From: Planctomycetota bacterium
GTDB taxonomy: Bacteria > Planctomycetota > Planctomycetia > Gemmatales > Gemmataceae
Direction of reading: 5' to 3'
DNA length: 57,181 bases
Assembly: GCA_003671255.1 (NCBI GenBank)
Contig: QWPF01000005.1
Location: forward strand, 8,770-65,950
The position numbers and the translations under genes were made by a program. The number at the start of each line of letters is the position of its first letter. The first letter of the stretch is position 1. The notes below the pieces were generated by a model. It saw nothing but the letters and a program-made list of their open reading frames with translations, searched no databases and had not been told where the DNA came from. Positions 1 through 57,181 of this stretch are shown here, in pieces.

Positions 1-3000
1 TTGTGCTGCTGATGTTAGCGTTCAAGAAATCTAAGCCTTGCGTTTTAACATCAATACCGGTCCCTGCAATTAAGTCATCCAATCTTCCAATGGATCCACT
101 AATTAAAGCGCCGGTTCCGCTAATGCTTCCAGCAGACTTCAAGGAAATTGCACCATCCCCGCGAATAGCGTCCACATTGCCATTGAGTACTATATTCCCA
201 AAATTCGTGGTCTGAATGTAAATGTTGGATGCGCCATCAGAAACGACACCGCCTGCACCAACGATCAGGGCTCCAGCATTGGTGAGTTCAATCTCACCGG
301 AACCGCTACTCGCAGCGGTGCCAATGGTAGACACCTTAGAAAAAGTAACATCCCCACCACCGGTTTGGGCAAATTGAATGATTTTAAGTTGCCCAAGGCT
401 TGAAGTCGTTTCTTTCGTTGTGAGAGAAGATACGGTGACGGCTGATGCTGATGTGTTGTTGATGACAATCGTGCCATTACTGGAATCTGCTGCAATTGAT
501 TGAGAAGCCAGATTGAGAGCCGTCGTGTCACCAATTCCGGATAGTGCAAGCAGGGTGATGGATGGAGTAGTTATCAAACCCGAACCGTTAATGGATCCAG
601 CACTCAGGTAGGTTGCAGCGGTACCTTTGGTTTTGATGATATCGGTTAGAACCAAAGCGCTGGTGCTGTTACTTGTTCCAAGAATATTTGCTGTGAAAGA
701 TTGATTGGCTGCGCCTGTGGTTATTGCAGATAAATCCACTCCGCCTGGGCCTATGGTTACTGAATCAAGTCCAGAATTGCCAACAATAACAAGCCCTGCA
801 AAATTAGCCAAAGTGTTTAAATCTAGGGTGATAGTTTTGGCGGTGTTATCAATAGTGATACCGGTGCCACTGCCGGTGATAGTGCCCGTTGTTCTGGTTG
901 CGGTAATCGTCAGGGTGGAACCAGCAAACGCAGTGTGGAAATCCGTTATGGCAGTGCCAGCGGAAGAGAGGAACAAGCCAACCTGACCACTGGTGTTGAC
1001 TGCGACAACGACATCATTTTGAACAGTTGGGGCGATATAAGCATATGAGCCGATATCGTTGTTAATGCGTGCGAAACCTCGCTGATCGAGATCTGGTGTA
1101 ACTAAAAGCGTTGTGCCAATGGCGGCACTACCAGCGCCCAAAGCCATGGTAAGGTTTGGCCCGCCGTTGTTTTGTAGAAGGCCAAGGTTTATTTGCGAGG
1201 AAGATTTTGTGGTGGCCCAAGCACTTACAAGTAATCCTGTTTGGGTAACGAGGTTGTTTGCTGCAGTTGCAGAACCAATAAGGTTTACAGTGCCACTGCC
1301 AGCGTAATCGCCACCGCTAGTGCTATTGGCGATAATGGTGTTGGCAATGTTGAGGGTAGAACCGGTGAAGTTGTATATGCCACCGCCGGGTTGAATTGCG
1401 GAATTGCCCGAGAGGGTGGAATTGGAGATCGTGCCAACGCCTCTGTTGTAAATGGCGCCACCTCGGCCAACACCTTGTATAGCAGAATTTCCGGATAGGG
1501 TGGAATTGTTCAAGGAGAAAGTACCACCAAAGTTTTCTATACCACCTCCAAAGGTAGCAGAATTGTCAAAGAAGGTGGAATTCGAAATATTAAGGCTGCT
1601 TCCGTTTGAAATTCCGCCACCACCATATGCGGTATTGCCCGAAAGGGTAGAGTTTAAAATAGTGAGGGCGCCCTCATTTCGTATGCCTCCACCGCTTCCT
1701 TTGCCATTGCCATCGTTCGCAATATTGGCAGAAAGCTTAGAATTGGAGATGGTAAGGTTCCCCCGGGTTAAAATACCACCGCCATAAGATGCGGAGTTGC
1801 CCGAAATTTCAGAATTGGAAATGTTAAGAACACCACTACTATTATTGTAAATGGCGCCGCCGTTTTGGGTTGCTGAATTGCCTGAGATGGAGGAATTGGT
1901 AACGGTGAGGGTGCCTGAGTTCCAGATGCCACCACCAAAAGATGCAGAATTGCCGGAGATGGTGGAATTGGCAATGGCGAGGGTGCCGGAGTTATTAAAG
2001 GCACCGCCGTTGCCAGAGGTTTGTGCCCCAGATACAGTAACGCCAGAGATAAACAGATTGCCGCCAGAAGCGATGTTGAAGATACTAAAGCCACCAAGAT
2101 TACCATTGATGTTGAGGTTGCTTGCGCCAAGGCCGGTGATCGTTACAGTGCCTGCGGTACCACCAGAAACCGAAGTGTTTGCACTAACAATATTGGGTAA
2201 TGCGCCAGCAAGGGTGATGGTGTAAGGATTGGCCCCTGTTAAGTTGACACTTATCTGATCATTACCTGGGGTGGTGTTGGCCAAAGTAATGGCTTCTCTT
2301 AAAGAAGTTAAATTATCTGAAGGATCAACCGTATCCAAAGTGGTGGTAACTTGAATACCGAAGGAATAAGCACCAATATCGGAGGTGGTGCGATTGATGC
2401 CACGCTGATCTAAACCATTTACAGGGGATGCATTACTAACGGTTGCATTGCCAGCGTTGATGGCAGCACTGCCGGCACCGAGGGCTAGAGTTTGGGTTGG
2501 GCCACCATTGTTTTGTAGTGGGCCAAGATTGAGTTGTGCACTTGTAACGCTTTGCGCCCAAAGATTAGTAGCACTTGAAGTGGCTTGGGTAACAATGTTG
2601 TTTGCTGGAATAGTAGGGTTGTTAATGTTACCTGAAGAGATAAGGTTCACGTTACCGGTGCCAGCGTAATCATTTATGGGCGAAGATGAGTTAATTACCG
2701 TGCTATTAGCAATGATGGTGTTGGCAATGTTGAGGGTGCCGTCGTTGTATATGCCTCCACTGCTTATTACGCTGTTGGCATTGCTTCTAGCAGAATTACC
2801 CGAAAGAGTAGAATTTGTAAGCGTAACAATACCAACAATTCCATTGGTTTTTTGGTTAAAGAGACCGCCACCTAAGGTTACTGCGGAATTTGCTGAAAAT
2901 GTTGAATTACTTATGGTAGAAGTACTATTTGAATCATTGAAAATGCCGCCGCCGAAGTTTGCCCTATTGCCCGAGAGGGTGGAATTGGCAATGTTGAGGG

Positions 3001-4861
3001 TGCCGTTGTTGAAGATGCCGCCACCAAAGTCCCCAACAGTATTGCCTGAGATGGTGGAATTGGAAACGGTGAGGGTGCCGGAGTTATTAAAGCCCCCGCC
3101 ATTGCCTGTGGTTTGCGCCCCGGAAACTGTCACGCCAGAGATGGTTAAATTACCACCAGTAGTAACATTAAAGATGTTGAAGTTACGAGTGGAGTTATTA
3201 ACATTTGTTGGGTCGCTGCCACTAATGGTAAGCGCGGAAGCGCCAAGGCCGTTGATGGTCAGGGTGCCTGCGGTGCTTACATTCAAAATAGTAGGCAGGG
3301 CAGCAGCCAAGGTAATGGTGTATGGGCTGGTACCAGTTAAATTAAAATTAATGTCATCATTACCAGGGTTGTTGGCAAGAGTAATTGCTGCATCGAGAGA
3401 TCCTGTGCCGGAAGCTGCAGTGGTGGTAACTTGAATACCGAAGGAATAGGCACCGATATCAGAGGTGATGCGATTAACGCCACGCTGATCCTTTCCAGAT
3501 ACCGGCGATGCGTTACTTATGGTGGAATTACCCGCAGCGATGGCGACGCTACCGAGAAGAAGGGCCTGGGTGAAGGTGGGGCCGCCATTATTTTGTAGAG
3601 GGCCAAGATTGAGTTGTGCACTGGTAACGCTTTGCGCCCAAGCGCTTGTAGCACTAGATGAAGCTTGGGTTACAATGTTGTTTGCTGAAATAGTAGGGTT
3701 GTTAATGTTACCGGAGGGAATAAGGGTTACGGTGCCGCCACCGGCGTAATCACCGCCGCTGGTGCTATTGGCAATGATGGTGTTGGCAATATTGAGAGTG
3801 CCGCTGTTATTGATGCCGCCGCCGTTGCTAGATGCAGAATTGCCGGAAAAGGTGGAATTGGTGATGGTGAGGTTATTGCTATTGCGGATGCCGCCACCGT
3901 TACTTGCAGAATTGTTAGAAAGGGTGGAGTTGGTGAGGGTGAGGAGGGTGCCGCTGTTGTAGATGCCACCGCCGCTGCTAGATGCAGAATTGCCGGAAAG
4001 GGTGGAATTGGTGAGTGTGAGATTACTGTTATTGAAGATGCCGCCGCCGTGCCTAGCAGCAGAATTGCCGGAAAGGGTGGAATTGGAAACAGTGAGGGAT
4101 CCGTTATTATGAATACCGCCGCCGCTGCCACCGCTGGTGGTTGCAGAATTGCCGGAAAGGGTGGAACTGGTGAGGGTGATGGTGCCAAATTTGTTGCTGA
4201 TGCCGCCACCGTATGTCGCATTATTACCAGAGAGTGCGGAATTGGTAACGGTGAGGGCGCCGTTATAGTTAAATATAGCGCCACCAAAGGTGCCTGCAGA
4301 ATTTCCAGAAAGTGTGGAATTTGAGACGGCGAGTGTGCCTTGATTATTAAAGGCTCCACCACTTCCGGAAGTATATCGGGCGCCGGAAACAGTCACGCCT
4401 GAAATAGAAAGATTACCACCAGAGGCAATGTTGAAGATATTGAAGTTACGGCTGGTATTGCCCCCATCCAAACCACTGATAATCAGGGAAGAAGAACCTG
4501 GCCCATTGATGGTAAGGGTGCCAACGGTAGTGCCTGTTCCAGTACCAGTGCCAGAAGCTGTTGCGTTTGCATTCAAAATGGTAGGGAGTGAAGCGTTGAC
4601 CGTATTGTTCAGGGAATTAAGCGTGATGGTGCCTGTTATGCTAAAATTAATGATGTCATCGCCTGGGGTGGCATTGGCATCAATAATAGCTTGCCGAAGA
4701 GATCCAGTGCCTGAATCAGCGGTACTGGAAACAATAATGGGGGTATTTGAAGGCGTGATTCTATCTTCAAGATAAATAAGTTGAGGAGGGCAAAGAAAAT
4801 AGCTTGGCCTACTTTTTGATGTTGTCAGGCCTTTAAAAATATGCCTAAAAAAATTTCTCAT
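1..4861 (-). CDS. Giant secreted beta-helix repeat protein (C-terminus outside window)
   Basis: The minus-strand frame starting at ATG 4861 reads open to the window edge (about 1620 codons, no stop), so the gene is partial at its C-terminus. A GGAAG ribosome site lies 7 nt before the ATG. Near residue 30 is a YLEDRITPS motif, like the LEDR/LEPR motif at the start of many planctomycete surface proteins. Three tandem modules follow. Each has a start like SGTGSLRQAI..AN, a series of N-S-T-x-S-G-N-S-A..GGGI(Y/F)N repeats (roughly 7, 4 and 8 copies), and an end like NNGGPT..AL...SAAI..G....DQRG.(N/A)R...DIGAY. The DQRG sites lie near 3480, 2400 and 1080. After about 1040 the sequence changes to Ser/Thr/Gly-rich hemagglutinin-like strands. 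Known: such repeats form right-handed parallel beta-helices of the choice-of-anchor/polymorphic-outer-membrane type. Inferred: a cell-surface or exported structural or adhesive protein. Substrate unknown. Confidence 0.88.
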   Translation of the reverse strand, partial: MRNFFRHIFKGLTTSKSRPSYFLCPPQLIYLEDRITPSNTPIIVSSTADSGTGSLRQAIIDANATPGDDIINFSITGTITLNSLNNTVNASLPTILNANATASGTGTGTGTTVGTLTINGPGSSSLIISGLDGGNTSRNFNIFNIASGGNLSISGVTVSGARYTSGSGGAFNNQGTLAVSNSTLSGNSAGTFGGAIFNYNGALTVTNSALSGNNATYGGGISNKFGTITLTSSTLSGNSATTSGGSGGGIHNNGSLTVSNSTLSGNSAARHGGGIFNNSNLTLTNSTLSGNSASSSGGGIYNSGTLLTLTNSTLSNNSASNGGGIRNSNNLTITNSTFSGNSASSNGGGINNSGTLNIANTIIANSTSGGDYAGGGTVTLIPSGNINNPTISANNIVTQASSSATSAWAQSVTSAQLNLGPLQNNGGPTFTQALLLGSVAIAAGNSTISNASPVSGKDQRGVNRITSDIGAYSFGIQVTTTAASGTGSLDAAITLANNPGNDDINFNLTGTSPYTITLAAALPTILNVSTAGTLTINGLGASALTISGSDPTNVNNSTRNFNIFNVTTGGNLTISGVTVSGAQTTGNGGGFNNSGTLTVSNSTISGNTVGDFGGGIFNNGTLNIANSTLSGNRANFGGGIFNDSNSTSTISNSTFSANSAVTLGGGLFNQKTNGIVGIVTLTNSTLSGNSARSNANSVISSGGIYNDGTLNIANTIIANSTVINSSSPINDYAGTGNVNLISSGNINNPTIPANNIVTQATSSATNLWAQSVTSAQLNLGPLQNNGGPTQTLALGAGSAAINAGNATVSNASPVNGLDQRGINRTTSDIGAYSFGIQVTTTLDTVDPSDNLTSLREAITLANTTPGNDQISVNLTGANPYTITLAGALPNIVSANTSVSGGTAGTVTITGLGASNLNINGNLGGFSIFNIASGGNLFISGVTVSGAQTSGNGGAFNNSGTLAIANSTISGNSASFGGGIWNSGTLTVTNSSISGNSATQNGGAIYNNSSGVLNISNSEISGNSASYGGGILTRGNLTISNSKLSANIANDGNGKGSGGGIRNEGALTILNSTLSGNTAYGGGGISNGSSLNISNSTFFDNSATFGGGIENFGGTFSLNNSTLSGNSAIQGVGRGGAIYNRGVGTISNSTLSGNSAIQPGGGIYNFTGSTLNIANTIIANSTSGGDYAGSGTVNLIGSATAANNLVTQTGLLVSAWATTKSSSQINLGLLQNNGGPNLTMALGAGSAAIGTTLLVTPDLDQRGFARINNDIGSYAYIAPTVQNDVVVAVNTSGQVGLFLSSAGTAITDFHTAFAGSTLTITATRTTGTITGSGTGITIDNTAKTITLDLNTLANFAGLVIVGNSGLDSVTIGPGGVDLSAITTGAANQSFTANILGTSNSTSALVLTDIIKTKGTAATYLSAGSINGSGLITTPSITLLALSGIGDTTALNLASQSIAADSSNGTIVINNTSASAVTVSSLTTKETTSSLGQLKIIQFAQTGGGDVTFSKVSTIGTAASSGSGEIELTNAGALIVGAGGVVSDGASNIYIQTTNFGNIVLNGNVDAIRGDGAISLKSAGSISGTGALISGSIGRLDDLIAGTGIDVKTQGLDFLNANISST

Positions 4862-32310: not shown

Positions 32311-33114
32311 TTATTTACTGCTGCCCGATGTTTGAAATATCTTCTGCAGAAAACCGGGCTGGGGCTCTTTGTTTGAAGTATCGTGAAGATATTTCGCCCA
32401 TGTTTCATAATTCGCAGGAAAATTCTTGCCTGTTATACTTTCTAATGAATCCCTGCAACAATTTACCAATGCCACATCTTGTTCGCTTTGTAATACCGAA
32501 AGTAAACTTTCTGATGCTTGATATTCCTTGTATTTACCTAATGCTTTGGCAGCTATAATTCTTTCATCAACTTTTTGCTGGCGATCCTGCTCAGAACCCA
32601 CCACTGCTGGTTCTTTCAATACCTTAACCAATAACTCCAAGCCTGATGGGCTTCGCACTTCACCCAATGAATTTAACACCTGACATTTTATTACCGTTGC
32701 AGTATCTGGATTAAAATTTGATGCCCTATAGTAAGCATCTTTTAAAACTTCGGGCGTGCGCGAATCCTTGAATGTACGAAGGGTTGATATCGCTTGAAGC
32801 CTACATATTGCTTGACGGTCTATTAATGCAGCATCTGATAGTATTTTGAATACTTTTTCTTGTTCTTCCGCGGTACCTTTATTCGACAATGGTTCTTTAA
32901 GCGAAGCTAGCGCTGCAGATCTCTTATCGCCGTCCACACTTTTTTCTAACACTACCATTGGCGGATCAGGCGGAAGAAATAAATTCTTAATCCGAAAATC
33001 CCTACTGGTAACAGAATCCCAGAATGATGCGCATCCTGGGGCTACAACCATCAACCCAATTAGCAAGGATCGCACGATAATTCGCTTGCCTACTCTTATT
33101 TGATAAAAACCCAT
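32311..33114 (-). CDS. Exported HEAT-repeat protein, possible lipoprotein
   Basis: 267 residues with an N-terminal basic and hydrophobic segment (IIVRSLLIGLMVVAPGC). Cys28 could be a lipid-attachment site, but Pro at -2 is unusual, so this is uncertain. The body shows HEAT-like helical pairs: AICRLQAISTLRTFKDSRTPEVLKDAYY, VLNSLGEVRSPSGLELLVKVL and IIAAKALGKYKEYQASESLLSVL. The C-terminal GKNFPANYETWAKYL motif is seen in other planctomycete HEAT proteins (from memory). Likely a periplasmic protein-binding scaffold. Convergent with the PQQ gene. Confidence 0.75.
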   Translation of the reverse strand: MGFYQIRVGKRIIVRSLLIGLMVVAPGCASFWDSVTSRDFRIKNLFLPPDPPMVVLEKSVDGDKRSAALASLKEPLSNKGTAEEQEKVFKILSDAALIDRQAICRLQAISTLRTFKDSRTPEVLKDAYYRASNFNPDTATVIKCQVLNSLGEVRSPSGLELLVKVLKEPAVVGSEQDRQQKVDERIIAAKALGKYKEYQASESLLSVLQSEQDVALVNCCRDSLESITGKNFPANYETWAKYLHDTSNKEPQPGFLQKIFQTSGSSK

Positions 33115-33355
33115 GTTTGTTTACCAACTTTTAATGTTACTACGCCCAAATTGTTAAACTGTTCCACTACAAGCGATCCTGATAGCCTTGATAAGATTTT
33201 TCTTCAATACGAGTTTATACCTTTCTCAGTAAAAAACTGCCCGACCTACTCTCAGCATTTACCCATAAATACCAAATTTGACAATTTATCATGTACTTAA
33301 GCAATTTTCTCACATAACCTCGAATTTCTGTTCATTTCATGCAATACTACCTCTT

Positions 33356-34762
33356 ATGGAAATCGAAGAATTTACTGCACTTGTCCATATTACTCAAAAA
33401 CTTGGCCTTATTTCTCCTTTTGTTGCCGAAGAAGTGCTCGCACATACCCGAATAAGTAACAGCAAGTTTATTGATCCAAAAATTTTAACTGAACATAACC
33501 ATTTGACTGATTGGCAGATTAGTAAGATTGTAGCAGGTGATGGCACCATGCTTTTATTTAACGGATATCACCTTCTTTTTCCGATTGGGCCAGGAAAATT
33601 GGGGCGAACTTACAAAGCCAGGAAAATTGATACCGGAGAACTTGTTGCGTTAAAAGTCCTCAGAAAAAGACACGCCAATAACAATGTTGAAATACTTAAA
33701 TTTTTACGCCAGGGCGAAATACTCAAAGATATTAACCACCCCAACATTGTTAAAACTTTAGATTTATTTCCAGGCACAAAAAACATACCACCCTACCTAT
33801 CTTTAGAATGGATGAAAGGCGGGTCAGTTTATGACTGGCTTGAAATAAAAACTTTTCTTAGTTGCCCCGAAGCTTGTCTTATTATGGAAGAACTAAGCAA
33901 AGGTTTTTTATTCTTACAAAAGATGGGGATATCACACGGGAATTTCTCAGGGGCAAAAGTACTGCTGGACAATCCTTCCCACCCTAAAATCAACAATTTT
34001 CGTTTTGGATCAATTTTTGACCCGCAAACAGGGCAGATTAATAACCAGAATTCGTTGTCCTTTGATTATGCGGGTTTAGCAAGGCATTCAGGAGAATCTT
34101 CCGGCCCTAGTCAATCAGATATTTTTTTTGCAGGGTGTCTTTTTTATCACCTTCTTACAGGAAAATCTCTCCTCCCAGGTTCTTATCAAAAAAGAAAAGA
34201 AATGTATAACAAGAATGAATTTAAATTTATTTTCAACACAGAGTTCGAAAAAACACTCCCCTCAGAAACATTGCCTATTATTAAAAACATGATTTCAATC
34301 GACCCAAAATCACGCTACTCCGACTTTCTTCAAGTTCAAATTGCAATTCAATCCATCAGAAAAAAAATTCAAGCGGAGTATGGCGTAAATCCATCAGAAA
34401 ACGGTTCGACTATTTTTTTGGTGATTCGTAATGATAAAAAAAGGCAACTGATCAAGGCTTACATGCAAAACAGGGGGTTTCGAATTTTGCAAGCAAACAA
34501 TCTTGAACAAGCCCTTACTGTTTACAACCGGGAACATTTCAAACACCTTATAATCGAATTGGATAGTTATCTTTCCATTAAAGAAACTTTTTCAAAAATG
34601 ATAATTGAATCAGAACTGTGCAGACGCTTTCTTCATACTATTTTTCTAGTGGGTAAAAAGAAACCACTGCACATCCCTGCAAGGAATGGCAACACTTTCA
34701 TTGAAACACCAATCGATTTTTCATTAGTTATGGAAAAAATCATGGCTCATGAAAAATCATGA
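33356..34762 (+). CDS. Pseudokinase fused to a receiver-like domain
   Basis: About 468 residues from ATG 33356 (the frame is open from 33278). The N-terminal region (ITQKLGLISPF..LTEHNHLTDWQISKIVAGDG..LLFNGYHLL) is the helical module typical of planctomycete Hanks kinases. The N-lobe keeps GPGKLGRTYKA and the ATP-site Lys (VALKVL, residue 100). The catalytic loop HRD..KPxN is HGNFSGAK (H194, with Asn in place of the catalytic Asp), and DFG is NFRFG. So it should lack phosphotransfer. Residues from about 350 (IFLVIRNDKKRQLIKAYMQNRGFRILQA..) resemble a response-regulator receiver, also degenerate in its acidic cluster. Inferred: a signalling scaffold. It overlaps the convergent uracil-DNA glycosylase gene by 6 bases. 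Confidence 0.75.
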   Translation: MEIEEFTALVHITQKLGLISPFVAEEVLAHTRISNSKFIDPKILTEHNHLTDWQISKIVAGDGTMLLFNGYHLLFPIGPGKLGRTYKARKIDTGELVALKVLRKRHANNNVEILKFLRQGEILKDINHPNIVKTLDLFPGTKNIPPYLSLEWMKGGSVYDWLEIKTFLSCPEACLIMEELSKGFLFLQKMGISHGNFSGAKVLLDNPSHPKINNFRFGSIFDPQTGQINNQNSLSFDYAGLARHSGESSGPSQSDIFFAGCLFYHLLTGKSLLPGSYQKRKEMYNKNEFKFIFNTEFEKTLPSETLPIIKNMISIDPKSRYSDFLQVQIAIQSIRKKIQAEYGVNPSENGSTIFLVIRNDKKRQLIKAYMQNRGFRILQANNLEQALTVYNREHFKHLIIELDSYLSIKETFSKMIIESELCRRFLHTIFLVGKKKPLHIPARNGNTFIETPIDFSLVMEKIMAHEKS

Positions 34763-34765
34763 GCC
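34744..34765. terminator. Bidirectional terminator-like hairpin overlapping two stop codons
   Basis: GGCTCATGA and TCATGAGCC form a perfect 9-bp stem around AAAA, spanning the last codons of both convergent genes. A T-containing tract follows on each side (TAGTTTT on plus, ATGATTTTTT on minus), so one hairpin may end both transcripts. Confidence 0.55.
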
Positions 34766-35557
34766 TAGTTTTGGCAGTACTCTTCCAAGGTGAGAAATCA
34801 AAAACTTCATGTCTTCCCACACTTCTTTTTTCTTTTCAGGGGTACGCAATAAAGATAAAGGATGATAGGTGCATAAAACTTGGATACCTTTCCAATCATA
34901 AAATTTCCCTCTTAATTTATTGACCGGAATTTTAGTATCTAATAGATTTTCTGCAGCACATGACCCAAGACAACAAATCACTTTTGGCTTTACCAATGCC
35001 AGTTGTTTTTCAAGAAAACCTCTACAGTTGGAAACTTCGCTAGGTAAAGGCAATCGCTTATCCGGGGGCTTGCAACTTATAATATTTAGAAAGTAAACTT
35101 CGTCACGCGACAAACCGCAGGCCTTCAGAATTTTATCCAACAACAAACCATCTTCACCAACAAAAGGCAACCCTTTTTCATCTTCAGCACTACCCGGGGC
35201 TTCCCCAACAAAACAAATATCTGGCTCTATTTTACCAACACCAAAAACCGTATTCTTTCTTGTTTGGACAAGTTGAGGGCATTTCACACAATTTGCAACC
35301 TCCTCTTTGAGCAATTGCAATAATCCTGTTTTTTTCTCAAGTGAATGCAAAACCGAATGAGTCGAACTTTTTTCAGGCAAGGGAAGATTTGTTACTGCTG
35401 CCTCACCATCAACAGGAGGAGATTTATGGGCCAAGCCCTCACTTATTTGCAAGGTTGAATTATTATTATTCTCGAGCCATTCAACACCCGAAAGCCTGAG
35501 GCTTTCAAGATGCATCTGGATTTGTTTGTGTAACTCTCTGGAAGAAATATTCTGCAC
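34757..35557 (-). CDS. Uracil-DNA glycosylase, family 4 (Fe-S type)
   Basis: Removes uracil from DNA in base-excision repair. The C-terminal about 190 residues show the family-4 pattern: CVKCPQLVQTRKNTVFGVG with the first two Fe-S cysteines, the water-activating/uracil-binding GEAPGSAEDEKGLPFVG, NIISCKPPDKRLP and NCRGFLEKQL with the remaining two cysteines, and HPLSLLRTPEKK with the His motif. An N-terminal extension of about 75 residues is polar and poorly conserved-looking, as in other members of the family. It shares a probable bidirectional terminator with the pseudokinase gene. Confidence 0.9.
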   Translation of the reverse strand: MQNISSRELHKQIQMHLESLRLSGVEWLENNNNSTLQISEGLAHKSPPVDGEAAVTNLPLPEKSSTHSVLHSLEKKTGLLQLLKEEVANCVKCPQLVQTRKNTVFGVGKIEPDICFVGEAPGSAEDEKGLPFVGEDGLLLDKILKACGLSRDEVYFLNIISCKPPDKRLPLPSEVSNCRGFLEKQLALVKPKVICCLGSCAAENLLDTKIPVNKLRGKFYDWKGIQVLCTYHPLSLLRTPEKKKEVWEDMKFLISHLGRVLPKLGS

Positions 35558-54217: not shown

Positions 54218-56392
54218 TTAGGTACAACGGATTACAACCACGGTTGCGTTATCCGTTGCTCCTTCAATATTTGCAAGATTAACCAGCCTTCTTGCTGCCA
54301 TTTGCGCAGATTGCGCCTCATTGGCAAGCATGGTTTTAAGATCATTATTTGAAATATGATTGGTTAAACCATCTGAACAAACAAACACCCAATCCCCGGG
54401 AAGAACTCGGGCATGATAAATCCCAACTTCTACATCAGGCTGACCGCCAATTGCCTGTTGAAGTTCATTTTTCCGGGGGTGATCCTCTGCCTCTTCAGCA
54501 GTAATGCTACCTAACTCAACAAGTCGATTTACCAAAGTTTGATCTCTGGTAACTTGGATTAACTCACCTTGGGATAGATGGTAAACCCTACTATCCCCGA
54601 CATGGCCAACGACCAGATTTTTCCCATCAATGTATGCAGCTTCTGCAGTACAACCCATGCCCCGCCTTTTGCTACCAGGGGCCCGGGAAGCAGTAAAGAT
54701 TTGCCGATTCGCTTCTTTAAGCGCTGCTTTAAACAACTGCTTGCAAGCCTCAACATCAAGTTCAGCAGGGGCATGGCTTTCGCCTTTAGGCGGAGGGCTT
54801 GCAGCGTCATTAGTAAAGGCTGAACCTCCCGCAAATTGAGAGAACATTTTATGCAAGGTAAGGCTTTGCCTGAGGATCTGCATAGTCATGGCTGCAGCAA
54901 TTTCACCCGCCTCGTAACCGCCCATTCCATCTGCTAAAAACACCAATGCTGTATCTGTTAGATCATCCTGACGAGATTCAGTGGCATGCATGAGAGCAAA
55001 AGCATCTTCATTGCCTGTACGAACCATACCCGTGGTTGTCCAACTAGCAATTTCAAGCCTGCCCCTCTCCAAACTTCGGCCTACTGAGGCCAGCGTTGCG
55101 ATGAGTTCTGTAAACCCGCTTTTATCATCTCTTCCAGCTTCATCAGTGGGAAATCTGGCATGAATTTCGGTACGGAATGTTTTGGAAATCAACCGACCAA
55201 AGGCTGGGTGAATATCAGGGAATCGAGGTATAAAAGGCTTGGGCACGCCGGGTTTCTCGAAATCATTTTCACTCAATTCGCGGTGCAGTATTTCCAGAGA
55301 ATAAATCAGCGCACCAAAGCTATAAAGGGAAGGCCTAGGCGAAGTACAACCTTTGCCCGCCAACAATTCCGGAGGCGTGTATAAAGTGCCGCGCACTGGG
55401 CTGCCCGGTGGAAAAGGCAAAGGAAGAATTTCGAGCACATCTTTAAGTTTTAATTTACCTTCGCTGGTCAATACAACACTTTCGGGCCTTACAAACTCGA
55501 GAAAACCACCGACCTTATGCAGCGATGCCAAAATTCGAGCAAGGTCTTGCAAGTAAGAAAACCTTATGCCGGCGTTTTGGCTTTCATCGTCCCAGATCTC
55601 CCACAAATCTTTCCCAGTTGGAACTTCTACAACAAGATAATTAGTCGCATTTTCAGTGCCGCCAAATAGAACTTTGGGCAAGCCGTTTGTTTCTGCTGCA
55701 TCCAAGGTGGATCTCAACCAACCCAAATTAGGCCACATCAACAACTTTGGCATTTCTCGCGTTGCTTCAATTCCACTTGTTCCAGAAAGCAAAGCATCAT
55801 CAAAGCTTGGTAAAAAATCATCAGACTCATCTGATTCCGGAGGTGCAGCACTAGGAACCTCGTTTTGATCACCCACATCGGCTTGGGAATAAATCAAAAC
55901 ATCGACGGGACCGCCCGGGGCCGTGATATCCACTCCCGCTTGAATTTTTATACCCGCAAATTCACGAAGAATTTTAGCTGCCTTGTATCTGCCTGCAACC
56001 ACTATTTCGGAACCAACGACTGCACCAGAATCATCTGCAGTTAATCCATCGCCTGCAAGTTCCTGCTCTGTGAAATAATAACCGCAATCCTGACATGAAT
56101 TATGATCCTGCAACCTTTGAGAACCACACACCTTGCAAAGAATTATTCTTGCTTCAACCTTAGAATAATTTTGAGCAACTGGTTCTTCGGATGAAATGAA
56201 TGGTGGGGAATCACTTAGTTCACTTTGGGAAATGTTGACTGCAGAAACTTCTTCAGCCACCTCGACAGGCAAAGCCATGGGAATAAAGCCATCTGTCAAC
56301 TGATCTGCATTATCAACGGGCATTGCAAGAGGAACATCCCCATTCGAATCAGTTTGGGTTTCATGATCATTAGAAGAAGGTTCAGTATGCAT
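54218..56392 (-). CDS. PP2C phosphatase fused to zinc ribbon and pseudokinase
   Basis: About 724 residues from ATG 56392, which has GAGGTG 9 nt upstream. A disordered acidic N-terminus is followed by a zinc ribbon (CKVCGSQ..CQDCGYYF, residues about 86-105). Next is a kinase-like domain (about 135-430): the catalytic loop HRD is LEF (GFLEFVRPESVVL), DFG is replaced by DVL, and no VAIK lysine is evident, so it is a pseudokinase. The C-terminal PP2C domain (from about 450) is intact, with the metal-binding Asp/Glu in RTGNEDAF, FLADGMGGYEAGEIAA, GCTAEAAYIDGKNLVVGHVGDSRVYHL, VCSDGLTNHI and TDNATVVVIR. Inferred: Ser/Thr phosphatase whose pseudokinase and zinc ribbon direct targeting. It lies 49 bases behind the kinase gene. 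Confidence 0.85.
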   Translation of the reverse strand: MHTEPSSNDHETQTDSNGDVPLAMPVDNADQLTDGFIPMALPVEVAEEVSAVNISQSELSDSPPFISSEEPVAQNYSKVEARIILCKVCGSQRLQDHNSCQDCGYYFTEQELAGDGLTADDSGAVVGSEIVVAGRYKAAKILREFAGIKIQAGVDITAPGGPVDVLIYSQADVGDQNEVPSAAPPESDESDDFLPSFDDALLSGTSGIEATREMPKLLMWPNLGWLRSTLDAAETNGLPKVLFGGTENATNYLVVEVPTGKDLWEIWDDESQNAGIRFSYLQDLARILASLHKVGGFLEFVRPESVVLTSEGKLKLKDVLEILPLPFPPGSPVRGTLYTPPELLAGKGCTSPRPSLYSFGALIYSLEILHRELSENDFEKPGVPKPFIPRFPDIHPAFGRLISKTFRTEIHARFPTDEAGRDDKSGFTELIATLASVGRSLERGRLEIASWTTTGMVRTGNEDAFALMHATESRQDDLTDTALVFLADGMGGYEAGEIAAAMTMQILRQSLTLHKMFSQFAGGSAFTNDAASPPPKGESHAPAELDVEACKQLFKAALKEANRQIFTASRAPGSKRRGMGCTAEAAYIDGKNLVVGHVGDSRVYHLSQGELIQVTRDQTLVNRLVELGSITAEEAEDHPRKNELQQAIGGQPDVEVGIYHARVLPGDWVFVCSDGLTNHISNNDLKTMLANEAQSAQMAARRLVNLANIEGATDNATVVVIRCT

Positions 56393-56441
56393 CGAAAAAT
56401 CACCTCTAAAAGCATTAAGCAAATAATATTAAACCATAGGC

Positions 56442-57181
56442 TTATCGAAGCCTGTTACCACAATGAATACAGCATCGACTACCCATTCTGTTGTTTTTAC
56501 CACAGTAATAACAAGGCGGTGTGGAGTCGGTTAAGGGTTCAGCACATTTGCCACAAAAAGGCTGACGAACTTGATTCATAGAAGCACATTTCGAACAAGG
56601 CACTTCCTTCGTTACTTGCTTTTTTTCCAGATCTGCCTTGATTTCCCTAGCGCTATAATAACGTTCATTAGGATCTTCGCTTAAATTGACTTTAATCATT
56701 TCGTAAAGCCATTGCGATTTGGCAGGAATAGGGTTGGCGGTATCTTTCAGCATCAGATCGATTTCATGAACTGTAATGGAACCTTCGGGAACCTTACCCG
56801 TTACCAATTGGTAAAGGGTGCACGCAAGGGCAAAAAGGTCGCTTCGTGGTTCAGGTTTACCTGCAATTTGCTCCAAGGGTGCATACCCTTCGGTATAAAC
56901 TTTAGTCTTTGCAGCATGCCTGTCTTTTTGATTTTTGCCTAAGTCTCGGGCTGTACCAAAGTCAATCATCTTGATGGATTTTTTATCTTCGAGAAGCATA
57001 ACATTTTCAGGTTTCAAATCACGATGAACCAAAGGTGGCACTTGTGAGTGCATATGCTGAAGCACATCGCAAATACTGCGGCCCCACTCGATAACACTTT
57101 CAATCGGGAAAGGAGTATGGCCATTAGATTCAAGGATCTTCATTAAATCCTTACCCTTGATAAACTCAAGCACAAGATAGG
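56442..57181 (-). CDS. Serine/threonine protein kinase, C-terminal part (start outside window)
   Basis: The reading frame is open to the right edge, so the N-terminal lobe is missing. Seen residues begin with the hinge (YLVLEFIKGKDLMKIL). The catalytic loop HRDLKPENVML, the MIDFGTAR activation segment, and YTEGYAPLEQIAGKPEPRSDLFALACTLYQLVTG are intact, so this is an active-type kinase. The last about 55 residues contain two zinc ribbons with eight cysteines in C..C pairs (CSKCASM..FCGKCAE, CYYCGKN..CCIHCGNRLR). It is directly upstream of the PP2C gene, consistent with a kinase/phosphatase signalling pair. Confidence 0.9.
   Translation of the reverse strand, partial: YLVLEFIKGKDLMKILESNGHTPFPIESVIEWGRSICDVLQHMHSQVPPLVHRDLKPENVMLLEDKKSIKMIDFGTARDLGKNQKDRHAAKTKVYTEGYAPLEQIAGKPEPRSDLFALACTLYQLVTGKVPEGSITVHEIDLMLKDTANPIPAKSQWLYEMIKVNLSEDPNERYYSAREIKADLEKKQVTKEVPCSKCASMNQVRQPFCGKCAEPLTDSTPPCYYCGKNNRMGSRCCIHCGNRLR

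What the first reader, a model, noticed from the sequence alone, without database searches (positions are those of the whole stretch)
33356..34762. Pseudokinase joined to a degenerate receiver domain
The kinase keeps the ATP-site Lys and GxGxxG-like loop but has HGN instead of HRD and NFR instead of DFG. The C-terminal about 115 residues resemble a response-regulator receiver whose acidic pocket is not clear. A two-signal fusion in which neither half appears catalytic suggests a scaffold or allosteric hub linking Hanks-type and two-component signalling. I am not aware of a named family with this arrangement.
Basis: partly seen in the sequence, partly recalled or inferred. Interest (0 to 1): 0.6.

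Follow-up and report, generated by a model that had tools for sequence, protein, structure and literature searches.

The report
Dead kinase fused to dead receiver
In two genera of planctomycete bacteria known here only from metagenomes (two of the genomes are from lakes), a signalling protein that nearly all their relatives keep as a working kinase has lost the catalytic residues of both its halves, yet it is still strongly protected by selection, so it probably works by binding partners rather than by catalysis.

Summary
ORF 33356-34762 (+, 468 aa) is a Hanks-type kinase fold (Pkinase E=1.7e-30) followed by a receiver fold (AlphaFold pLDDT 85; Z=16 to KdpE). Both active sites are gone. Kinase: alphaC Glu→Gln119, HRD→HGN, catalytic-loop Asn→Lys, DFG→NFR; the ATP-site Lys and Gly-loop remain. 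Receiver: acidic pair→Ile-Arg, phospho-Asp→Glu401, Thr/Ser→Gly, Lys→Thr. The fusion is not unique. It belongs to an apparently unnamed, single-copy kinase-receiver family found in 39 of 40 sampled class-Planctomycetia genomes and, full-length, in none of 204 sampled genomes elsewhere in the phylum. Of 164 distinct family members, 155 keep all six kinase residues scored. The only 8 that lost them are the window's genus plus one sister genus; they form one clade (100/100) and are the only 8 with Glu at the phospho-site. Synteny with intact copies shows the window gene is the positional orthologue, not a side paralogue. dN/dS is 0.07-0.16, so it is not decaying. Best reading: a once-active kinase-receiver turned, in one lineage, into a non-catalytic scaffold or allosteric module. 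Partner and function are untested. Novelty: new variant of a known kind.

The parts
33356..34762 (+). 468-aa pseudokinase-receiver protein, including stop codon
   Evidence: ORF; same length and start in the complete congener copies
33356..33559 (+). N-terminal helical domain, residues 1-68, shared by the whole family
   Evidence: alignment; four helices plus a short fifth in the AF2 model
33560..34375 (+). kinase-fold domain, residues 69-340
   Evidence: Pfam Pkinase E=1.7e-30; best solved matches are PknB kinase domains
33587..33604 (+). Gly-rich loop GPGKLG, residues 78-83, retained
   Evidence: G80 identical in all 8 degenerate copies and about 100% of intact ones; G83 invariant in alignment A1
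33653..33655 (+). ATP-site Lys100, retained
   Evidence: invariant in degenerate and intact copies
33710..33712 (+). Gln119 in place of the alphaC Glu
   Evidence: Glu in about 100% of intact copies, Gln in all 8 degenerate ones
33935..33958 (+). HGNFSGAK in place of HRDxKxxN (catalytic loop), residues 194-201
   Evidence: the His is kept
33995..34003 (+). NFR in place of DFG, residues 214-216
   Evidence: the Phe is kept
34403..34759 (+). receiver-fold domain, residues 350-468
   Evidence: AF2 pLDDT 84.8 pTM 0.82; VIA Z=16.0 to KdpE receiver; family profile E=2e-11 to solved receivers
34424..34429 (+). Ile357-Arg358 in place of the receiver acidic pair
   Evidence: Glu at 357 in 95% of intact copies; Ile, Met or Ala in the degenerate clade
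34556..34558 (+). Glu401 at the phospho-acceptor Asp position, end of beta3
   Evidence: the only 8 Glu among 164 distinct members are exactly the degenerate clade
34652..34654 (+). Gly433 at the Thr/Ser position
34706..34708 (+). Thr451 at the pocket Lys position
   Evidence: Lys is rare in the whole family
32311..33114 (-). HEAT-repeat lipoprotein, divergently transcribed neighbour
   Evidence: Pfam HEAT_2 3.3e-7; the same divergent position next to intact orthologues
34757..35557 (-). uracil-DNA glycosylase, convergent neighbour; synteny marker
   Evidence: Pfam UDG 7.3e-35; conserved position

Best explanation
Shown by sequence: the gene is the positional orthologue of a single-copy kinase-receiver family conserved across class Planctomycetia. 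In the common ancestor of the window's genus and one sister genus, both active sites were lost, and the protein then stayed under strong purifying selection. Inferred: it now works without phosphotransfer, as a scaffold or allosteric subunit. The kinase fold is probably held in a fixed state; the HRD-His and DFG-Phe, which are spine residues in typical kinases, together with the Gly-loop and Lys are kept, so metal-independent nucleotide binding is possible. Together with the pseudo-receiver it would present a binding surface to a partner. Glu401 may hold the receiver permanently in its signalling state. A corollary is that the ancestral active protein probably already had a valued non-catalytic function, since the gene survived the loss of catalysis.
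For: Six-residue kinase signature intact in 155 of 164 distinct members; lost only in the 8 window-clade copies; the ninth exception is a contig-edge fragment. Degenerate copies are one clade, 100/100, single change, on a long branch of 2.58. dN/dS 0.07-0.16 for the whole gene and 0.03-0.12 for the receiver across six congeners, with no internal stops. 26 near-invariant columns, including G80, K100, H194, F215, D255 and R320, are unchanged while E119, D196, N201 and D214 are all replaced. Synteny HEAT(-) / gene(+) / UDG(-) is shared with intact orthologues in Limnoglobus roseus (L034) and a Baikal MAG (L068); tadA-PQQ-HEAT-gene with L039; gene-UDG-amidase with L040. No second full-length family member in any of the 8 genomes. 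Receiver fold confirmed.
Against: No biochemical data, partner or phenotype. The kinase half diverged fast relative to its neighbours (27% identity to intact orthologues, where UDG keeps 40-50%), so part of the change may be relaxed constraint rather than a new role. Lack of catalysis is inferred from residues only; some atypical kinases and SelO-type enzymes work with unusual residues. The test that catalytic columns are lost preferentially is only borderline (Fisher p=0.053, 5 of 5 against 24 of 50).
Confidence: 0.62

Rival explanations
1. The protein keeps a residual or different catalytic activity (weak kinase, AMPylation, or nucleotide hydrolysis) using K100 and the Gly-loop, as SelO and SidJ do in other pseudokinase folds.
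For: K100, G80, G83 and R84 are invariant in the degenerate clade, which suggests a use for nucleotide. Precedents of re-purposed pseudokinases are reviewed in PMC12599244.
Against: The catalytic Asp, the Mg-binding Asn and Asp, and the alphaC Glu are all replaced, most by the same residue in both genera. The catalytic-loop motif differs from SelO (HGxxxxDN with DYG/DFG).
Confidence: 0.2
2. A pseudogene drifting towards loss.
For: Long branch and lower identity than neighbouring genes.
Against: dN/dS 0.03-0.16, no internal stops in any of seven congener copies and one sister-genus copy (one of the congener copies cut off by its contig end), identical replacement residues kept across two genera.
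Confidence: 0.03
3. Phosphomimetic lock: Glu401 replaces phospho-Asp, so the receiver is permanently on and constitutively engages a partner, and the kinase domain is only a carrier.
For: Glu occurs at the phospho-site in exactly the 8 degenerate copies and in no other of 164. Asp-to-Glu can give phosphate-independent activity and is the commonest substitution in Asp-less receivers, 26% (PMC4395418).
Against: The rest of the pocket (acidic pair, Thr/Ser, Lys) is also gone, and Glu alone is often insufficient. Half of the family lost the Asp without gaining Glu.
Confidence: 0.2
4. Not the orthologue but a duplicated or transferred kinase that replaced it.
For: Only about 25% identity to intact family members.
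Against: Shared flanking genes on both sides with intact copies, same three-part layout, single copy.
Confidence: 0.03

Closest known systems
Planctomycetia kinase-receiver family found here (Limnoglobus roseus, Gemmata, Isosphaeraceae, Pirellula and Rhodopirellula orthologues)
   Same: N-terminal helical domain, PknB-like kinase, C-terminal receiver; single copy; synteny in Gemmatales
   Different: Others keep K-E-D-K-N-D in the kinase; phospho-site is Asp in most Gemmataceae, and Ser/Asn/Cys/Gly/Met in many others; never Glu
Hanks-type Ser/Thr kinases of the PknB type (Pfam PF00069; M. tuberculosis PknB)
   Same: Kinase fold, Gly-loop, ATP-site Lys, activation-segment and alphaF landmarks
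   Different: Catalytic Asp, metal-binding Asn and Asp, and alphaC Glu all replaced
Aspartate-less receiver (ALR) domains (RitR, ChxR, FrzS; PMC4395418)
   Same: Receiver fold without phospho-Asp; Glu is the commonest substitute
   Different: Here fused C-terminally to a kinase fold; acidic residue 1, Thr/Ser and Lys lost too; helix alpha4 not predicted
Bacterial pseudokinase families ActPs1-3, GLW, CP1, DYD, DLHK, and EssB/YukC (PMC12599244)
   Same: Kinase fold with several lost motifs; EssB/YukC is a non-catalytic scaffold
   Different: None is described with a receiver or from planctomycetes in that review; the VAIK Lys is retained here

Membership tests
Planctomycetia kinase-receiver family (defined here) | Full-length three-part layout, single copy, only one full-length match per genome | tested here: met
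Planctomycetia kinase-receiver family (defined here) | Conserved position next to HEAT lipoprotein and UDG in Gemmatales | tested here: met
Hanks-type protein kinase | Kinase fold with Gly-loop and VAxK lysine | tested here: met
Hanks-type protein kinase | Catalytic HRD Asp, catalytic-loop Asn, DFG Asp, alphaC Glu | tested here: not met
Hanks-type protein kinase | Phosphotransferase activity | not testable with these tools
   needs purified protein
Phosphorylatable receiver (Pfam Response_reg) | Receiver (beta/alpha)5 fold | tested here: met
   helix alpha4 is not predicted in the window copy
Phosphorylatable receiver (Pfam Response_reg) | Phospho-acceptor Asp with acidic pair and Lys | tested here: not met
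   I357, R358, E401, T451
Aspartate-less receiver (ALR) | Receiver fold lacking the phospho-acceptor Asp | tested here: met
Known bacterial pseudokinase families (ActPs1-3, GLW, CP1, DYD, DLHK) | Family-specific motif and partner-domain signatures | not tested
   no profiles of these families on hand; the review does not mention receivers or planctomycetes
SelO-type AMPylase | HGxxxxDN catalytic-loop form with DFG/DYG | tested here: not met
   HGNFSGAK and NFR

The most novel reading that the evidence does not exclude
The class-wide Planctomycetia kinase-receiver has a core function that does not need phosphotransfer. One lineage has run the natural kinase-dead, receiver-dead experiment and kept the protein, which makes the non-catalytic role of a universal bacterial Hanks kinase directly testable.
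Probability: 0.4. Interest if true: 0.72.

Novelty: new variant of a known kind. Interest (0 to 1): 0.56.

Why it matters
Bacterial pseudokinases are mostly uncharacterised, and few cases show an active orthologue, an inactive orthologue and the switch between them in one locus. Here intact copies in about 155 relatives and degenerate copies in two sister genera share position, layout and selection. This gives a comparative handle on what the kinase domain does besides phosphotransfer. It also exposes a single-copy kinase-receiver fusion found in nearly every Planctomycetia genome sampled, which I found no description of in the papers I could search.

Tried and rejected
Pfam on the window protein gives no receiver hit; only the family profile and the fold show it. 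Kinase paralogue or transfer: rejected on synteny and single copy. Pseudogene decay: rejected on dN/dS. Register shift making D403 the acceptor: it would break the hydrophobic beta3 pattern and the gap-free alignment; D403 is Glu in the sister genus. Partner from context: the HEAT lipoprotein is a conserved neighbour in Gemmatales only, and Pirellulales have a different ~920-aa secreted neighbour with no Pfam hit in the one copy scanned, so no class-wide partner emerged. Fisher test for preferential loss of catalytic columns: p=0.053, not claimed as significant. Literature: no paper found describing this fusion; the 2013 survey of planctomycete kinases cited in PMC8567305 was not read. Plasmid search: no full-length hit, only generic kinases.

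Full report
Observation. The ORF at 33356-34762 encodes 468 residues in one open frame. The complete congener copies have the same length and ATG, so the upstream TTG at 33278 is unlikely to be the start. Pfam gives a kinase domain at residues 72-322, E=1.7e-30. The Gly-loop GPGKLG and K100 are present. The alphaC Glu is also replaced by Q119, and the catalytic-loop Lys and Asn by S198 and K201.

The C-terminal part. In the family, 38 of 46 C-termini hit Response_reg. A profile of those C-termini hits solved receivers over their whole length, best E=2e-11. The window domain predicted alone has pLDDT 84.8 and pTM 0.82 and aligns to receivers at Z=16.0, 2.0 Å over 116 residues (KdpE). It is a receiver, with no helix alpha4 in the model of this lineage. 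The pocket is lost: I357 and R358 for the acidic pair, E401 for the phospho-Asp, G433 for Thr/Ser, T451 for Lys.

The family. A full-length relative exists in nearly every genome of class Planctomycetia sampled. In a phylum-wide draw, 39 of 40 class genomes had a match at E of 2e-91 or better. The 204 genomes outside the class gave only generic kinase matches that stop before the receiver. Within the window's family 81 of 95 genomes have it (my count), most of the rest being fragmented assemblies. It is single copy: in the eight window-clade genomes the next matches are generic kinases that end before the receiver. Named members include Limnoglobus roseus, Gemmata, Isosphaeraceae, Pirellula and Rhodopirellula.

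Where catalysis was lost. Of 164 distinct members, 155 keep all six kinase residues scored (K100, E119, D196, K198, N201, D214). Eight have lost E119, D196, N201 and D214, and seven of these also K198; the remaining one is a contig-edge fragment. The eight are the window's genus, which includes a Lac Pavin MAG, and one sister genus, Baikal-deep-G161. They form one clade with support 100/100 on a branch of length 2.58. The receiver is more labile: Asp at the phospho-site in 75 members, Ser, Met, Asn, Gly, Cys and others elsewhere, and Glu in exactly the eight degenerate copies. So Asp-less receivers are common in the family, but loss of the kinase is unique to this clade.

Orthology. In the window, a HEAT-repeat lipoprotein lies divergently upstream and a uracil-DNA glycosylase convergently downstream. 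The same order flanks intact copies in Limnoglobus roseus and a Baikal Gemmataceae MAG. tadA-PQQ-HEAT-gene is shared with L039, and gene-UDG-amidase with L040. The window gene is therefore the orthologue of catalytically intact kinases. Its kinase domain is 27% identical to theirs while intact copies are 50-61% identical to one another, and UDG keeps 40-50%: evolution sped up here.

Selection. Across six congeners dN/dS is 0.07-0.16 for the gene and 0.03-0.12 for the receiver (some dS values are near saturation). Among near-invariant family columns, 26 are unchanged in the clade, including G80, K100, HRD-His194, DFG-Phe215, D255 and R320. The replaced ones include alphaC Glu, HRD Asp and Arg, catalytic-loop Asn, DFG Asp and Gly. 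The enrichment for catalytic columns is only borderline (p=0.053). The pattern is that of a preserved fold without catalysis, not of decay.

How it likely works. Shown: orthology, loss at both sites, conserved fold, purifying selection. Inferred: the protein acts by binding, as a scaffold or allosteric module, perhaps with nucleotide bound without metal. Glu401 could hold the receiver in a signalling state, since Asp-to-Glu is the commonest change in Asp-less receivers and can be activating, though often not alone (PMC4395418). A non-catalytic pseudokinase scaffold has a precedent in EssB/YukC (PMC12599244). That the gene outlived catalysis suggests the ancestral protein already had a non-catalytic role. 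No partner is known.

Comparison and novelty. It is a member of the Planctomycetia kinase-receiver family by layout, position and copy number, and is not a functional Hanks kinase or phosphorylatable receiver by the residues tested. The recent review of bacterial pseudokinase families mentions no planctomycete or receiver-linked family, and a 2024 paper on planctomycete kinases does not use the words receiver or pseudokinase. Pseudokinases, Asp-less receivers and kinase-receiver fusions are each known kinds; the combination in one lineage of a class-wide family is a new variant.

Noticed in passing
window 54218-56422 (-): 734-aa protein with a PP2C phosphatase domain (E=3e-11) preceded by a kinase-like stretch that Pfam does not recognise; a second likely pseudokinase, next to an HRD/DFG kinase with zinc ribbons at 56442-57173 (-).
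   Followed up: partly
L182 (G000 contig C170, about 53.9-56.1 kb, - strand): The same genome has another kinase-receiver protein (710 aa): kinase with intact HRD and MAPE, then two receivers, the first apparently without the phospho-Asp and the second with it.
   Followed up: partly
L037, L060, L069, L105 and about 18 other Pirellulales loci: A roughly 920-aa protein of the secreted kind, with no Pfam hit in the one copy scanned, is divergently placed next to the intact kinase-receiver orthologue.
   Followed up: partly
window 32311-33114 (-): HEAT-repeat lipoprotein divergent from the gene, conserved in that place in several Gemmatales; possible functional partner.
   Followed up: partly
G027, G096, G097 (genus g22): All three genomes of one Gemmataceae genus lack a full-length family member; possible true loss.
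   Followed up: no
L052 and L035: MAG contigs labelled Nitrosomonadaceae and Singulisphaera carry copies that group with Pirellula and Gemmataceae respectively; probably mislabelled or mixed bins.
   Followed up: no
window 2676-4362: Two long ORFs on opposite strands made of repeated short motifs; looks like a tandem-repeat region with spurious antisense frames.
   Followed up: no
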